64,000 bases of DNA, taken from NCBI RefSeq assembly GCF_041647995.1, contig NZ_JARRIB010000002.1, positions 124,001 through 188,000 of the forward strand, given 5' to 3'. A program made the position numbers and the translations under genes. A model generated the notes under the pieces. That model made no database searches, had not been told where the DNA came from, and saw only the letters and a list, made by a program, of their open reading frames with translations. The stretch comes from Pyrococcus kukulkanii. Its GTDB lineage: Archaea > Methanobacteriota_B > Thermococci > Thermococcales > Thermococcaceae. This document shows, piece by piece, positions 17,147 to 28,785 of this stretch (positions are counted from its first letter, which is position 1; every line of letters starts with the position of its first letter).

Positions 17147-17616
17147 ATGATAGAGTTCATCCTCTTAGGGCTAGCAATAGGGTTCCTAGTTGGGCTCAGC
17201 GGAGTCGGCGGGGGATCCTTAATGACGCCTTCGCTAATATTCTTAGGTGTTAGACCAGAGGTTGCTGTAGGCACCGACTTCCTCTTCTCCCTGTTAACTA
17301 AGATCTTTGCAACGGCGTTGCATGGAAAAAAGGGGAACGTTCGGATTGATATAGCATGGAGACTAATAGCCGGAAGCGTTCCCGCAGTGCTTTTAGGAGC
17401 CTTCATATTGATTAGACTACCCAGGGAAGAACTTGGCCAGCTCCTTGTAACCCTCATTGGAGTAGTTCTCGTTGTAGTTTCAGCCTTATCCTTGGGATTT
17501 GAAATTTCGAGATTTTTAAGGCCAAGGTGGATTTATGTCTATATCTTAGGTTTTTATAGTTGGTTTAAGCGTTCAGCTAACTTCTGTTGGAGCTGGAATA
17601 ATAGTTACGGCCCAAT
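17147..17616 (+). pseudogene. Truncated TauE/SafE-family transporter
   Basis: Starts MIEFILLGLAIGFLVGLSGV with GGGSLMTPSLIFLGV, the N-terminal signature of TauE/SafE anion exporters, followed by further membrane helices. Near 17550 the frame breaks (GGTTTTTATAG; one T fewer restores it) and continues FIVGLSVQLTSVGAGIIVTAQ to a TGA at 17614-17616. The family has about 250 residues; only some 155 codons remain before the junction with an unrelated fragment. Inactive unless frameshifted sequence is an error, and truncated in any case. Confidence 0.85.
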
Positions 17617-17880
17617 GAAGACAGGGATTCCAGCTATAACGATTCCAATGTGGATGACGATGGCCACGGGCAAAACCCCCGGTGAACTTGGCCTCTACGG
17701 CTTCAGGCACAGGAAGAGGGGCACGTACAATGACATATGGATAGCCAACAGCAGGATGATAAAGGAGAAAGCAGTGTGGGACTACATAGCCGAGAAGGGG
17801 AGAAAATCTGTTTTAGTTGGAATACCCCCTCCTATCCGCCAAAGAAAGTCAATGGTTGGTTGATCAGTTGCTTCATATTA
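17603..17880 (+). pseudogene. Internal fragment of a type I phosphodiesterase / nucleotide pyrophosphatase
   Basis: Reads YGPMKTGIPAITIPMWMTM then TGKTPGELGLYGFRHRK, TYNDIWIANS and VWDYIAEKGRKSVLVGIP; after one missing C (CCCCC near 17824) it continues PSYPPKKVNGWLISCF. This is the N-terminal substrate/metal-binding part of archaeal alkaline-phosphatase-superfamily phosphodiesterases. The true start and about 75% of the protein are missing. It is fused in frame to the broken TauE gene, so a deletion joined two genes. Confidence 0.75.
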
Positions 17881-22183: not shown

Positions 22184-23040
22184 TTAATGCTTCTGTTTTC
22201 TCTCGGCAAGGTAATCTCTAAGGGCCTCCTTCCAGTGCCTCATTTCTATACCAATCCTCCTTAGTTTTCCAACGCTCAGCGCTGAAAATCTTGGCCTCCT
22301 TGCCAGCCTACCCAGTTCCTCAGAGCTTATTGCTTCTACCTCAACGTCCCAGCCAAGAATTTCAAAGATAGCCTTTGTGAACTCATACCAAGAGCAGAAG
22401 CCGTCGTTGGTCATGTGATAAACCCCATATTCGGGCATAATTTTCAGGAACTCACTTAATGCAAACGCAACGTCCCTAGTATAAGTCGGACTCATGAACT
22501 GGTCACTCACTATCCTGAGCTTTTCTCCCTTCTTTGCCTTCTCTATCACCCACTCGACGAAGTTCCCTCCCTTGCCTCTCGCTCCCCTCTTCCCGTAGAG
22601 GCTGGCCACCCTTATTTGGAGGAGTAGTTTCTCGTGAATATCTCGCCCATGAGCTTGCTCGCCCCATACACGTTTATTGGATTCGGGACATCTTCTTCCT
22701 TATACGGCCTCCCTTTTTCGCCGTCGAAGACATAGTCAGTGCTTATGTAAACATTCACGGCGTTTATCTTCTCAGCTACCTTTGCAACGTTTAATGCCCC
22801 GATTGCGTTGACTTTGAATGCTTCTTCAGGATAAAGCTCTGAATCGTCAACCCTAACATAAGCGGCGGTGTTTATTATCACATCAGGCTTAATCCTTTCG
22901 AGCACTTTGAGGCTTTCCAATATTGTAACGTCTACGTCTTCATGAGACAGGGAAATGACTTCAAAGGCCGGATCCTTAGAGAATACCTCAACTATGTCGC
23001 TCCCGAGTTGACCTGTGGCGCCGATGACGGCGACATTCAC
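22184..23040 (-). pseudogene. rmlD: dTDP-4-dehydrorhamnose reductase, split by a small deletion
   Basis: N-terminal part 22612-23040: MNVAVIGATGQLGSDIVEVF (NADPH loop), INTAAYVRVDDSE, VYISTDYVFDG and YGASKLMGE (YxxxK). It ends TRNYSSK at a TAA, and the C-terminal part 22184-22609 resumes VASLYGKRGARGKGGNF, in another frame, to the end. About four residues (LIIR-like) are missing and the frame is shifted, so a small deletion inactivated the gene. Last step of dTDP-L-rhamnose synthesis. Downstream of rmlC but separated by a vapBC pair. Confidence 0.88.
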
Positions 23041-23507
23041 GGGACATCACCTACATTGGTTACCTCTTCGGGAGAATTTAAAAGGTGTATTCTCTCCTCT
23101 TCACATGCTTTAGTGAAATCACTGTCAAATGAAATCAAGTATTTTACATCGTAAAACTTACAGGTTGCGAGAATTAGTGCATCATTTGGTAACAGGCCGT
23201 ATTTTATCATATACTTAACGGCGAGTGTTTCAATAACCCTGTTTATCTCTAGTTCAACAAAAAGCTCAAAAAGATTTAAGAAATCCAGAAGTTCTTCCTT
23301 AAGGCTCCTTATAATATCCGGATTGTGTTTGAGTGTGTAGGGTCTTTTCCCTGTTAATGCCCTTAGATAAACCATGAGAGCCTCACTAAACACTACACTA
23401 TTAGAGTACAGAATGTCAAATTTCTCCCTTAAGTCGAGAAGATTTATATCCCCTTCTAAATGTTCGACTATTACGTTTGTGTCCACGAAGGCCGTTAGAC
23501 CGGCCAT
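23037..23507 (-). CDS. vapC: VapC PIN-domain toxin in the rml cluster
   Basis: 156 residues: FVDTNVIVEHLEGD (first Asp), VVFSEALMVYL (Glu), LLPNDALILATCKFY (Asp) and ISFDSDFTKACEEE. Complete. ATG 23507 overlaps the antitoxin end by 13 bases. Its 3' end touches the start of rmlD (ATGA-type overlap at 23037-23040), so the TA pair is spliced into the rml operon without a gap. Confidence 0.9.
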   Translation of the reverse strand: MAGLTAFVDTNVIVEHLEGDINLLDLREKFDILYSNSVVFSEALMVYLRALTGKRPYTLKHNPDIIRSLKEELLDFLNLFELFVELEINRVIETLAVKYMIKYGLLPNDALILATCKFYDVKYLISFDSDFTKACEEERIHLLNSPEEVTNVGDVP

Positions 23508-23683
23508 TCATCTTCAACCTCTTTTAATATTTCTTTGAGGTTCATACCCTTAAACTTCCCGTGAAGTTTCTGAACGCTATGCTCTATAATGATCTCCCTC
23601 TCAACGATTCGCCTTACCCTATCAATGTCAATTGTCCTTAATATCTCCTCAGGGATATTTAGCTCGATGGTAATCTTTCCCAT
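23495..23683 (-). CDS. vapB: VapB-type antitoxin
   Basis: 62 residues: MGKITIELNIPEEILRTIDI, then RVRRIVEREIIIEHSVQKL and an acidic end, LKEILKEVEDEWPV. Short, with an N-terminal strand like many archaeal antitoxins, and overlapping a PIN toxin, so VapB-type by context. It begins 58 bases after rmlC ends; AAAATGTTTTATACTG upstream (minus strand, about 23710-23726) has a TATA-like core. Confidence 0.82.
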   Translation of the reverse strand: MGKITIELNIPEEILRTIDIDRVRRIVEREIIIEHSVQKLHGKFKGMNLKEILKEVEDEWPV

Positions 23684-24547: not shown

Positions 24548-25175
24548 TTACCACTTTAGCTTCCAGGGCGTTGGATGCAGAACTCTTTCATTCACTAAGG
24601 GCCTCCACCACCACTCGTTTTCGAGGTACCACTTAACGGTCTCCTTTATCCCCTTTTCAAAGCTGTACTTTGGCCTCCACTTAAGTTCCCTCATTATCTT
24701 CCATGAGTCAAGAGAGTACCTAATATCGTGTCCTGTCCTCAACGAATTCTATCAAGGATTCATCCTTGCCCATAATCCTTAATATAGTTTTAACTACCTC
24801 AAGGTTTGTCTTCTCCTCTCCAGCTGAGATGTTGTAAACTTCTCTCGCCTCACCCTTAAGCAACACTGCTTCTATGGCTCGAACGTGGTCTTTAACGTAC
24901 AACCAGTCCCTAACGTTCTGCCCGCTCCCGTATATGGGCACCTTTAATCCCATGTTTGCCCTGATGATTGTCTTTGGTATGAGCTTCTCTGGGAACTGGT
25001 AGGGGCCATAGTTGTTGGTGCACCTTGTTATTGAGGCATTAAGTTTGTACGTCCTAGCCCAACCGAGTACGAGCATGTCACTTGCAGCTTTCGTTGCTGA
25101 ATAAGGAGAAGAGGGCATTAACCTATCCTCCTCCGTGAAGGAGCCCTTAAGAATGTCCCCATAAACTTCGTCAGT
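24548..25175 (-). pseudogene. rmlB: dTDP-glucose 4,6-dehydratase, C-terminal part (C-extein of an intein)
   Basis: Begins exactly after the intein with TDEVYGDILKGSFTEED, the catalytic Thr-Asp-Glu of RmlB, then SPYSATKAASDMLV (YxxxK), RCTNNYGPYQFPEKLIPKTI, GSGQNVRDWLYVKDH and the C-terminal ENEWWWRPLVNE. The frame breaks near 24735 (EDR to GHDIRYS; a few bases are missing). The N-terminal NAD-binding half, about 130 residues, is absent, replaced by unrelated sequence beyond the intein. The enzyme cannot be made. Confidence 0.92.
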
Positions 25176-25930
25176 ATTATGCAATAGAATTGGAACATTA
25201 CCATCGAAAAATTTGTGATTTCCTTCTATAACAATGTCATATACTGTTACTTTCTCTCTAATTTTAGTAATTTTCTTAACTTTTGCAACCCCAACATCTG
25301 AATCTACATATTTGTTCTTTCCTCGTATTACTCTTTTTGCAATTTCTTTCCCAATTAACCCGTTTTTCTTAAGTTCATATTTTGCAACAAACTGTTTGGG
25401 AAGTTAGGTCTTAACTAATTCTAATGGAATGCACTTTGAATGAGGTGTTCTCATTGGGTTGTTTTCATAATTTTCGGAAGAAATGACTAAGCCATGCATA
25501 ACCAAGTCATATTCCTCCCTTCTCTGTAATTCTCCCTTCATATTTTTACATGCCCTTTTGATGTATCTCGAGTTTATCCCCTTAAGCCTGGTTAACCACA
25601 CTAAACTAAATATGAGATTTGGGTTTATTGATGTGAACACCCTGCTACCATCCTTTCTTATATGAGCATCACCTTCATAACCTTCTAGCATCTTAGTTAT
25701 GTGTTCTTTCGATAGTTTCCACACCCACGAAGGAATACGCTCGTCTCCAGAGGTACTTCCCCACTCAGAGAAAATGGAATGTAAAACTTCCCCACCAAAC
25801 TCCAATTGATATACGTCTCCGTGTTTTTTCTCCTAATAACTGCCTTTTTATATCCAAAATATTTCTCTAACAATTTCTTTGCCTTTTTAAGGGATTCAAG
25901 ATCTTTTGTAGTTATTGCAACTTTTTTAGG
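25176..25930 (-). pseudogene. Intein relic (C-terminal endonuclease part and splicing end) in rmlB
   Basis: Read on the minus strand: KDLESLKKAKKLLEKYFGYK, then (after an A6 run near 25824; A7 restores the frame) HGDVYQLEFGGEVLHSIFSE, RIPSWVWKLSKEHITKMLEG with YEGDAHIR (second LAGLIDADG-type motif), then a TAA near 25407, and in the same frame LKKNGLIGKEIAKRVIRGK, VYDIVIEGNHKFFDGNVPIL (splicing block F) and LLHN at the end, followed by Thr. The His-Asn/Thr end is the canonical intein C-terminus. The N-terminal splicing domain and first half of the endonuclease are missing. Confidence 0.9.
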
Positions 25931-26328
25931 AGGCTGGTGAGGCTTATGGGAAGATGATGGATGACGTGCTCAAGAAGGCCAAAGAGTACTCCTTCGTCGT
26001 TGGACTCCTCGAAGACCTGTACACCCTCCTGTACTCTCAGGATGAGAGGCCCTTAGGAGTGTTCCCATATACCTTGATGTTGTCCTGCTGGAGGCCATTG
26101 AGAGGCATGTAAAGGTTTTGGGGATAGGTGAGATAAAACTAGGCTTTCTCAAAAAAGAACTTATCTCCCTGCCAGAGCACTTGCAGGGAAGAGGATCCCC
26201 TATCATCCGCAAGGACAGGAGGGGGACCAGTTGAGTTTGATCGGAGGCATCTACTACTTTACGCCCAATAACTCTAGAAGCCCTTTCCGTGTGGAATGAA
26301 GTTAGGAAGAGAAAGAAGGGCAAAGTTG
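25931..26328 (+). pseudogene. Fragment of an unrecognised gene at the rmlB/intein deletion junction
   Basis: The plus strand reads EAYGKMMDDVLKKAKEYSF then VVGLLEDLYTLLYSQDERPLG, and after a frame change near 26052 VPIYLDVVLLEAIERHVKVL, GEIKLGFLKKELISLPEHL. The sequence has the look of real coding DNA but lacks a start and a single frame. I do not recognise the family. It abuts the point where the intein homology is lost, so it probably arrived by the rearrangement that removed the rmlB 5' half. Confidence 0.45.
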
Positions 26329-26729
26329 CTACACATTCCCTGTGACTTGGCTCGGTAGCAATCTTCCCAAGTCCGTTTTGTCGAAATCTGAGTCAAAGCT
26401 CACTATTTTAAGACTGTATTTCTTAGCTAGGACATATTGATAGGCGTCATCAAAATCTATGTTAAATTTCTTTGACGCTCTAATAACATCTTTAAAATCA
26501 AAAACCGATAATCGCAGAACTGTGACACCTCCTCCCACAAAAACATCTTCTATGAACTGAAAATGTTATGCTTTCCTAATTTAAACCAAGATGATTCCAA
26601 TTGAATACAGAGAAAAAATCCGAAATATGGAGATACTCAGCCGGAACTCTTCTTAGGAAGTTTTCTGCTTCATGGGATTTCTCCTGTTCAAGAAGAATTT
26701 CGGGGAAAATGTTTGTATCTTAAGTACAT
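26329..26729 (-). pseudogene. vapC toxin with several frame breaks
   Basis: From 26729 the minus strand encodes, across frames, DTNIFPEILLEQEKSHEAEN then FLRRVPAEYLHISDFF, and from about 26540 VTVLRLSVFDFKDVIRASKK, FNIDFDDAYQYVLAKKYSLK and VSFDSDFDKTDLGR, ending at 26329. All PIN blocks are in order but at least three indels are needed. Pairs with the DUF2281 antitoxin remnant just upstream. Confidence 0.82.
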
Positions 26730-26730
26730 C

Positions 26731-26950
26731 CATTACCACCATTCAAGAGCTTTGTGCTGGAGCTCTACCGATGAATATTTATCTTTAAACTCTTTCAAAC
26801 CTCCTTTCCATGTAAGCCTTAGCCGTCCCTGTTTTTTCTTTGCTTTCCTTTCTAGTAGAAATTCTATGTAATCTATAACTTCCCTCTTGAGATCATCTGG
26901 CAATTTTTGGAAAAGTTCATATGCCTTCTTAAAACTATCTTTCTTTTATC
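26731..26950 (-). pseudogene. DUF2281-type antitoxin remnant
   Basis: Reads SFKKAYELFQKLPDDLKREV then IDYIEFLLERKAKKKQGRLR, LTWKGGLKEFKDKYSSVELQ and HKALEWW before a stop near the toxin start. This is the DUF2281 antitoxin pattern in full apart from its first residues; the start codon has been lost near 26950. Partner of the broken toxin at 26329-26729. Confidence 0.78.
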
Positions 26951-27460: not shown

Positions 27461-28039
27461 ATGAGGGCTCCAATACTGAAGGAGAAGATATTGAGGGAGT
27501 TGGCGGTTAAAGGAGAAACTTCTGTTAAAGAGCTTTTAGCCAAATTTAAGGTTAACAGGCCTTACCTTTACAGGATCCTCAGATCATTGGAGAGCAACGG
27601 TGCTATAATTTTGGAGATGGGGAAAATAAAGGTTGTTGACAAAAAAGCTCTCCTCTATACTTGGGGAGAGGAGAAGAGGAAGATATTTCAGGTTATTAAA
27701 GGAGCAACATACAGGGTAAGGCCGAAAAAGGTTAGGGACTTTGTGGTGTTCTCTGGTACGTCGGCGTTATGGGTTCTTGGAAAGGTTCTGGAGCCAAGCT
27801 TTGGGACGGCGTACATTAAAAAAGATGATTTTGATATGTTAAAGCAGATTGGGATCAAAAGAGAGGGGTATCCCATCAGGTTCTACTCCTATGATGAGGA
27901 TGTTTTTAACTATACGATAGGCATAAGAGGGTATAGGATTGCAACAATTGAGCAGATTATTGCCGATTCCATTGGAGAGGGGATGTATACGAGGATCATA
28001 GAAGAACTGCTGGAGGAGATAGAACAATGGAAGAGATAG
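27461..28039 (+). CDS. Winged-helix regulator of an AbiE-like pair (putative antitoxin)
   Basis: 192 residues. N-terminal winged helix MRAPILKEKILRELAVKGET, VKELLAKFKVNRPYLYRIL, then a second domain with FVVFSGTSALWVLGKVLEPS and YDEDVFNYTIGIRGYRIATI. It overlaps the next gene, a nucleotidyltransferase-like protein, by 13 bases. Regulator plus nucleotidyltransferase is the AbiEi/AbiEii (type IV TA) layout, so this is probably the antitoxin and autorepressor. Two damaged copies lie at 7727-8306 and 9915-10381. I assign the family by architecture, not by clear similarity to AbiEi. Confidence 0.7.
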   Translation: MRAPILKEKILRELAVKGETSVKELLAKFKVNRPYLYRILRSLESNGAIILEMGKIKVVDKKALLYTWGEEKRKIFQVIKGATYRVRPKKVRDFVVFSGTSALWVLGKVLEPSFGTAYIKKDDFDMLKQIGIKREGYPIRFYSYDEDVFNYTIGIRGYRIATIEQIIADSIGEGMYTRIIEELLEEIEQWKR

Positions 28040-28785
28040 CGGTGAGGAGCTGGAACAATCCGATAATTAAGGAATCCTACGATTGGATGCTGAAAGTTGG
28101 CAGAGAACTGAAGGAGGAGCTTGTGTTAGTGGGAGGGTGGGCAACTTACCTTCAAGCTCAGAAATTGAAGAGTATGTCACTTCCCTCTCTAGACATTGAT
28201 TTTGTTGCTTTGAAGGAAAATTTTAGGACTATTGAAAAACATTTGCTGGCAAACAACTTTGTGCCAGTTGGTCTTAGATATATTAAATATTACCACGAAA
28301 CACTGGACGGAGGATTAAAGGAGATATGTTTTGAGGAGTCCAAACGGATTCCTCCATATGAGCTCAGGGAACTGTTTTTGGACATCTTATGGGACGAAAA
28401 GATAAGTCCAATGAGCTTTACACACCCCTACGTTAAGGTGATTTTTGAAAAAGAACTTTACGATGAAATTGAAGGTGTTAGTGTTGCCCTTCCTGAGGTT
28501 ATCTTGTCGATGAAGTTTCTGATAGAGAAAAACAAGTACCGAGGACAAAAGCAGTTGAAAGACCTAGTGGATATTTATGTATTGGCCGTTAGTCCTGAAG
28601 AGCTGGACTTTGAGGTGTTTAAACTTCTGTACTCCAAGGAAAAATTTGACCTGAATTGGGTAGTTCAATATTTCAAGGAAAACGAGGAGTTCTTAGCTTC
28701 GGTAGCACGTGAGCTGGGGATAGTGTTTGATAGAGAGGAGTTTTTGTTCGTTATCAGCGAGCTGAAAGAAAGCTTAAAGGGGTGA
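28027..28785 (+). CDS. Nucleotidyltransferase-fold protein, AbiEii-like (putative toxin)
   Basis: 252 residues. Early block VLVGGWATYLQ followed 14 residues later by LDIDFVAL gives the GG...DxD pattern of the nucleotidyltransferase superfamily (AbiEii/DUF1814-like), near residues 38-66. Later helical blocks (LPEVILSMKFLIEKNKYRG, KQLKDLVDIYVLAVSPEEL) match the usual AbiEii KxxDxxD region. AbiEii toxins transfer nucleotides to RNA and are restrained by AbiEi. Intact and coupled to the regulator upstream, so this is the one complete copy of this family in the window. Confidence 0.7.
   Translation: MEEIAVRSWNNPIIKESYDWMLKVGRELKEELVLVGGWATYLQAQKLKSMSLPSLDIDFVALKENFRTIEKHLLANNFVPVGLRYIKYYHETLDGGLKEICFEESKRIPPYELRELFLDILWDEKISPMSFTHPYVKVIFEKELYDEIEGVSVALPEVILSMKFLIEKNKYRGQKQLKDLVDIYVLAVSPEELDFEVFKLLYSKEKFDLNWVVQYFKENEEFLASVARELGIVFDREEFLFVISELKESLKG

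What the first reader, a model, noticed from the sequence alone, without database searches (positions are those of the whole stretch)
24548..25930. Intein relic in rmlB at the catalytic TDE motif
The minus strand encodes a LAGLIDADG-type block, then splicing block F (VYDIVIEGNHKFF) and the end NVPILLHN, directly followed by TDEVYGD, the active-site Thr-Asp-Glu of dTDP-glucose 4,6-dehydratase. Inteins typically choose such conserved active sites, end in His-Asn and need Ser, Thr or Cys next. Lesions (A6 run, in-frame TAA, loss of the N-terminal intein part and N-extein) show it is dead. I do not recall an intein reported in rmlB, so this may be a new insertion site.
Basis: partly seen in the sequence, partly recalled or inferred. 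Interest (0 to 1): 0.85.

Follow-up and report, generated by a model that had tools for sequence, protein, structure and literature searches.

The report
Dead intein in archaeal sugar-enzyme gene
A Thermococcaceae archaeon, probably a Pyrococcus, carries the broken back half of a self-splicing protein insert (an intein) exactly at the catalytic site of its rmlB gene, itself broken, and working-looking copies of the same insert sit at the same spot in two related archaea.

Summary
Window 25928-25176 (minus strand) is the C-terminal half of a LAGLIDADG intein, joined at HN|TDEVYGD to the C-terminal half of rmlB. Open orthologous inteins (506, 505 aa) occupy the identical codon in two Thermococcaceae MAGs; the other 40 of 42 relatives' rmlB genes have this site empty. 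Lesions: an in-frame TAA, a one-base loss beside (not in) the A6 run, a 5-base loss in the C-extein, and loss of everything upstream of ~25928 (intein N-half, rmlB N-half, rmlA). No N-half was found elsewhere in the genome and rmlD is frameshifted, so the dTDP-rhamnose pathway looks dead. A second, barely similar 363-aa intein interrupts rmlB at another site (AAE|...|THVDRS) in 4 of 41 relatives' genes. Carriers of each site are scattered on the rmlB tree, and in the intact copies intein DNA is more alike than the flanking exteins: the signature of homing. Nearest inteins found are those of replication factor C (~24% identity). No report of an rmlB intein turned up in the open-access papers searched, but key compilations were not available. 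Verdict: a real relic; host gene and two sites apparently unreported; ordinary mechanism.

The parts
25176..25928 (-). intein relic: residues ~255-506 of the intact 506-aa RmlB site-b intein (C-terminal part of the endonuclease region and C-terminal splicing blocks)
   Evidence: DNA alignment with L045/L046; tblastn; 80.5%/78.1% aa identity over 215 residues; Pfam PF14890 E 1.4e-6, below cut-off
25665..25691 (-). second LAGLIDADG-type motif, MLEGYEGDA
   Evidence: sequence; intact inteins have KMLEGYEGDAHIRKDG
25206..25244 (-). splicing block F, VYDIVIEGNHKFF
   Evidence: sequence; intact copies VYDIVI[ED]GNHKFF
25176..25199 (-). splicing block G, NVPILLHN, ending in His-Asn; the +1 residue Thr is codon 25175-25173
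   Evidence: sequence; identical in L010 and L011
25404..25406 (-). in-frame TAA in the intein where both intact copies have Gln (CAG)
   Evidence: alignment
25833..25834 (-). position of a one-base loss (frameshift), just 5' of the A6 run 25829-25824
   Evidence: alignment
24548..25175 (-). C-extein: C-terminal half of rmlB (dTDP-glucose 4,6-dehydratase) from the catalytic TDE on
   Evidence: TIGR01181 E 3.8e-74 for 25184-24723; 92% identity over 207 columns to the copy of G004
24734..24735 (-). 5-base loss in the C-extein (frameshift)
   Evidence: alignment; two frames meet here
25930..26123 (+). fragment of a coiled-coil gene that lies upstream of rmlA in G011; its abutment on the intein marks the deletion that removed rmlA, the rmlB N-half and the intein N-half
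   Evidence: tblastn of the L055 447-aa protein, E 9.8e-21, two frames; DNA 78% to G011; gene order in L055, rmlA there by TIGR01208
23742..24308 (-). rmlC (dTDP-4-dehydrorhamnose 3,5-epimerase), open
   Evidence: TIGR01221 E 5.6e-87
22184..23040 (-). rmlD, split by a frameshift into two frames
   Evidence: RmlD_sub_bind 1-140 and 150-284 in two ORFs; frames

Best explanation
It is the remnant of a homing intein (LAGLIDADG type, Ser nucleophile, His-Asn|Thr exit) that had invaded rmlB of a Pyrococcus-like archaeon at the codon of the catalytic Thr-Asp-Glu. While alive it would have been translated inside RmlB and spliced itself out to give normal enzyme (inferred from the motifs of the intact relatives), and its endonuclease would have copied the insert into empty rmlB alleles (inferred from the distribution). 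Later a deletion joined the middle of the intein to a coiled-coil gene upstream, removing rmlA, the rmlB N-half and the intein N-half; a stop and two frameshifts in intein and extein and a frameshift in rmlD go with the loss of the dTDP-rhamnose pathway (lesions shown; one deletion and the order of events inferred). The intein thus persisted in a dead host gene instead of being removed precisely.
For: Open 506/505-aa inteins at the identical site in G068 (= JASGLT010000033.1) and G052 (= JALSON010000363.1); the other 40 of 42 relatives' genes have the site empty. Intact copies bear S1, TGSH (TxxH), both LAGLIDADG-type motifs (LFGLYLAEG, MLEGYEGDA), block F and HN|T; the L011 intein matches Intein_splicing at E 3.3e-21 and LAGLIDADG_3 at E 2.6e-10. 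Mobility: the three carriers lie in three places of the rmlB tree; holding them together is rejected, p-AU 7.3e-6; L010/L011 intein DNA is 81.8% identical against 75.1% (N-extein) and 75.5% (C-extein). Death: lesions, no N-half of rmlB or of this intein found elsewhere, no rmlA ortholog found (best 39%), rmlD frameshift. Death late in the divergence: window against L046, intein part pN 0.096, pS 0.767; C-extein pN 0.102, pS 0.727.
Against: Splicing and homing were not tested, and the window copy can do neither. Only two intact copies, both from metagenome bins, were found. Scattered carriers could also come from many losses. The window's intein is about as diverged from the two intact ones (pS 0.77) as its C-extein is from theirs (pS 0.73 and 0.95), so there is little sign of a recent transfer into this lineage itself; synonymous sites are near saturation, so ages are rough. 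The same-species genome G010 (77% complete) has no rmlB match at this strength, so the lesions are seen in one assembly only.
Confidence: 0.95

Rival explanations
1. Assembly or sequencing error: the gene is really intact and the lesions are artefacts.
For: Three of the lesions are small (1 base, 5 bases, one stop) and only one assembly shows them.
Against: The 5' junction joins sequences that are kilobases apart in G011; the missing N-half and rmlA were not found elsewhere in an assembly of 99.83% completeness in 9 contigs; rmlD is broken as well.
Confidence: 0.03
2. A free-standing or split intein/endonuclease piece that is still expressed and used (a domesticated homing endonuclease or a trans-splicing C-intein).
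For: The 133-aa ORF 25404-25805 holds one LAGLIDADG-type motif; split inteins exist (recalled).
Against: The frame is shifted and stopped inside, the first endonuclease motif and blocks A and B are gone, and no N-intein partner of this kind or rmlB N-half was found in the genome.
Confidence: 0.02
3. Another known intein (for example the RFC one) pasted beside rmlB by recombination, not a true rmlB allele.
For: The RFC intein is a homolog, and G000 carries one.
Against: Intact orthologs at the same rmlB codon are ~80% identical to the relic; the RFC intein of this genome is only 25% and 36% identical, in two pieces, to the intact L011 intein.
Confidence: 0.01

Closest known systems
Inteins of archaeal replication factor C small subunit at LNA|S...LLHN|SDERG (436 aa; Thermococcaceae, one in this genome at G000:C3)
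   Same: Homologous over the length: one blastp alignment 1-506 to 1-436 for 3 of 11 (E 7e-28 to 1e-22, 22.5-23.7%), two pieces for the other 8; Ser first residue with S[VI]SK[DN]TP start, LLHN end, host residues [S/T]-D-E at +1 to +3 (host named by NCBIfam for the copy of this genome)
   Different: RmlB site-b intein has an extra ~80-residue winged-helix-like stretch (TrmB profile E 1.1e-4, below cut-off; the only part of the poor model with block pLDDT of 60-74) and sits in a metabolic, not a replication, protein. An intein of DNA polymerase II large subunit (L101) scores nearly as well over residues 44-359 (80.9 bits; host)
Intein at a second rmlB site, AAE|S...HN|THVDRS (363 aa), in G009, G021, G086, G089
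   Same: Same host gene, same class of element, scattered carriers, intein DNA more alike than exteins
   Different: Another insertion site and barely similar sequence (25.2%, 76/302; blastp E 2e-4 in pieces); none of the 41 genes with both sites held carries both
PI-PkoII (PDB 2cw7) and the TFIIB entries 5o9i, 5o9j
   Same: Nearest solved structures by sequence: 2cw7 E 1.2e-7 over residues 223-373, 5o9i E 6e-14 over residues 35-107
   Different: Other host genes and sites; weak, partial similarity

Membership tests
Intein (class 1, protein-splicing element) | In-frame insertion in a host gene that relatives have uninterrupted at the same codon | tested here: met
   2 intact carriers, 40 empty sites among 42 relatives' genes
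Intein (class 1, protein-splicing element) | Block G His-Asn followed by Ser/Thr/Cys | tested here: met
   NVPILLHN|T in the window and both intact copies
Intein (class 1, protein-splicing element) | Block A nucleophile and block B TxxH in the window copy | tested here: not met
   N-half deleted in the window; both present in the intact copies (S1, TGSH). Hence 'relic of', not a working intein
Intein (class 1, protein-splicing element) | Profile match to the Hint/intein splicing domain | tested here: met
   window piece E 1.4e-6 but under the curated cut-off (28.6 against 35.8 bits); intact copy E 3.3e-21, above it
LAGLIDADG homing endonuclease | Two LAGLIDADG-type motifs with acidic residues | tested here: inconclusive
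   Intact copies have both (LFGLYLAEG, MLEGYEGDA; LAGLIDADG_3 E 2.6e-10); the window keeps only the second, and no LAGLIDADG profile matches the window piece
LAGLIDADG homing endonuclease | Cuts the empty rmlB allele and homes | not testable with these tools
   Only indirect: scattered carriers, intein DNA more similar than exteins
Intein (class 1, protein-splicing element) | Self-splicing | not testable with these tools
   needs expression of the intact gene

The most novel reading that the evidence does not exclude
RmlB, a sugar-nucleotide enzyme outside replication and repair, is a recurrent intein host in Thermococcaceae with two independent, previously unreported sites whose inteins travel between genera, and the site-b element arose by a jump of an RFC-type intein from its S-D-E site to the T-D-E of RmlB; in this lineage the element ended not by precise loss but by death of the whole host pathway.
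Probability: 0.25. Interest if true: 0.6.

Novelty: new member of a known kind. Interest (0 to 1): 0.45.

Why it matters
Thermococcales inteins are described as frequent in replication, recombination and repair proteins (PMC12713403, passage seen). A sugar-nucleotide gene with two separate sites, with intact, empty and dead alleles side by side and a possible donor type (RFC), gives a compact natural series for the homing cycle, including a relic inside a dead host gene. It also warns annotators that rmlB in Thermococcaceae can be about 700 or 840 aa long.

Tried and rejected
RFC-to-RmlB site jump at the DNA level: the true site is not the rmlB site most like the RFC target (median rank 19 of 317 in-phase sites at 12 bases a side, 45.5 at 18, 43.5 at 24; best in 0 of 32 genes; 10 RFC targets), so the jump rests on protein homology and the shared [S/T]-D-E only. 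AlphaFold of the intact intein with a two-row alignment gave mean pLDDT 40.6, pTM 0.26: not used for any fold claim, and no fold search was made. A pattern-based scan of IMG/VR found no relative. N-half elsewhere in the genome: not found. The first rmlB tree had the window row in a wrong frame and is discarded; one search replaces it. A note gives the intein end as 25174; the right end is 25176. rmlB inteins outside the window's phylum were not searched beyond the genome-contig scan, which returned only the two MAGs and works from two short peptide patterns.

Full report
What is there. On the minus strand of the window, from about 25928 down to 25176, lies the C-terminal half of an intein, followed without a gap at 25175 by TDEVYGD and the rest of rmlB to 24548. 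The piece holds the second LAGLIDADG-type motif (MLEGYEGDA), splicing block F (VYDIVIEGNHKFF) and block G (NVPILLHN); block names are recalled. Pfam Intein_splicing matches it at E 1.4e-6, 28.6 bits, under the curated cut-off of 35.8; no LAGLIDADG profile matches it. A whole-genome search with the same family lists it as one of 17 matches in this genome, the only one with a stop inside.

Intact copies. A search of 94 Thermococcaceae genomes with the relic plus C-extein gave 43 rmlB genes at E 2.9e-80 or better, counting the window's; the next match is at 1.2e-21 with 34% identity, and the list of weak ones was cut. Two of the other 42, G068 (L011, 839 aa) and G052 (L010, 812 aa, cut by its contig end), are interrupted at exactly this codon by open inteins of 506 and 505 aa: VHIS|SVTGDTPVLL...NVPILLHN|TDEVYGD. 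The other 40 genes have the site empty. The relic is 80.5% (173/215) and 78.1% (168/215) identical to the same part of the intact inteins. The intact ones have Ser1, a TGSH block B, LFGLYLAEG and MLEGYEGDA, block F and HN|T; the L011 intein matches Intein_splicing at E 3.3e-21 and LAGLIDADG_3 at E 2.6e-10. It also carries about 80 residues between the splicing and endonuclease parts that resemble a winged helix (TrmB profile E 1.1e-4, below its cut-off).

Lesions. Aligned with both intact genes: a one-base loss between 25834 and 25833, beside rather than in the A6 run; a TAA at 25406-25404 where both have CAG; a three-base in-frame loss; a 5-base loss in the C-extein near 24735/24734. At ~25928 homology ends, and from 25930 the plus strand carries a frameshifted fragment of a coiled-coil gene (tblastn E 9.8e-21) that in G011 lies beyond rmlA, upstream of rmlB (rmlA by TIGR01208). 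The simplest reading is one deletion of some 4 kb (size inferred from the G011 order plus the missing ~254 intein residues). A search of the own genome found no rmlB N-half (best a 43% paralog), no N-half of this intein (best the RFC intein) and no rmlA ortholog (best 39%). rmlD is frameshifted; rmlC is open. So the dTDP-rhamnose pathway looks lost.

Age. Differences are overwhelmingly synonymous: window against L046, intein part pN 0.096 and pS 0.767, C-extein pN 0.102 and pS 0.727. The protein was under selection for most of the time since the split, so death came late in it. Synonymous sites are near saturation, so no finer dating is possible.

Mobility. On a tree of 43 C-exteins the window groups with G011, G004 and G009 (100/95), L011 with G027 and G029 (98/88), L010 in a third clade (100/98); forcing the three carriers together is rejected (p-AU 7.3e-6). 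Many losses could give the same pattern, but the L010/L011 intein DNA is 81.8% identical while the N- and C-exteins are 75.1% and 75.5%, which points to transfer of the intein. For the window copy there is no clear excess, so its arrival is older or its decay hides it.

A second site. In 4 of the 41 relatives' genes whose N-half is held (L034 is cut), a 363-aa intein interrupts AAE|S...HN|THVDRS: G009, G021, G086 and one of two rmlB copies of G089. These inteins are 86-96% identical; their DNA is more alike than either extein in all 6 pairs. The site-a and site-b inteins are barely similar (25.2% overall; blastp E 2e-4 in pieces), so rmlB was probably invaded twice. Empty genes have Ser at this position except L022 (Thr, ASETHVDRS), which is also the +1 residue beside the site-a intein.

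Origin. In a search of 115 genomes of the phylum (E up to 1e-12), the best relatives outside rmlB are inteins of replication factor C at LNA|S...LLHN|SDERG: 9 of 9 loci returned for them, L063-L071, have these junctions, and the one in this genome is named RFC small subunit by NCBIfam. For 3 of 11 RFC inteins compared (two of the 11 are one gene, L002 and L041) one blastp alignment spans the whole length (22.5-23.7% identity, E 7e-28 to 1e-22); the other 8 align in two pieces. Among ten intein-bearing loci of the own genome only RFC scores clearly (70.9 and 68.2 bits; the next 35), but an intein of DNA polymerase II large subunit from G087 (L101) reaches 80.9 bits over part of the length. The shared [S/T]-D-E exit context suggests a site jump, but the DNA around the rmlB site is not especially like the RFC target. 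I hold this as a lead only.

Literature. Nine completed searches of the open-access library (listings and abstract starts seen, no whole text) showed no report of an rmlB or dTDP-glucose dehydratase intein. Term searches inside PMC2814812, PMC5874633, PMC7765530 and PMC12713403 (passages seen) found dehydratase, dTDP or rml in no intein-host sense. Three further intein papers asked for by id are not held (recalled to be compilations or reviews). NCBIfam has intein-containing models for other hosts (Tes, GyrA, RtcB) among the hits shown, none for RmlB. So the sites are apparently unreported, not proven new.

Verdict. It is a new member of a well-known kind.

Noticed in passing
L014, L031, L075, L078 (G009, G021, G089, G086): A second, barely similar 363-aa intein in rmlB at AAE|S...HN|THVDRS; four scattered carriers, intein DNA more alike than the exteins in all 6 pairs.
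   Followed up: yes
L022 (G073), L028 (G078), L081 (G082): Empty rmlB alleles with SDEV instead of TDEV at site b, and L022 also has Thr instead of Ser at site a; possibly target-site variants or traces of former occupancy.
   Followed up: no
window 17147-17863: Open frame that fuses the front of a TauE/SafE exporter (residues 5-137) to a piece of a type I phosphodiesterase (151-225); the DNA matches two separate places near rmlA in L045: another rearrangement scar of the same island.
   Followed up: partly
window 26329-26927: Remains of a PIN-domain (VapBC-like) gene pair upstream of the relic; similar DNA lies between rmlB and rmlC in G004.
   Followed up: partly
window 23037-23683: Open PIN-domain gene with a 62-aa neighbour (no Pfam match) between rmlC and the broken rmlD.
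   Followed up: no
window 27461-28785: Overlapping pair: a helix-turn-helix-like protein (192 aa, hits below cut-offs) and a 252-aa protein without a Pfam match; layout recalls an AbiE-like toxin-antitoxin pair, by recall only.
   Followed up: no
L074 and L075 (G089): One genome with two rmlB copies, one empty and one with the site-a intein; an empty target beside a full one asks why homing has not occurred.
   Followed up: no
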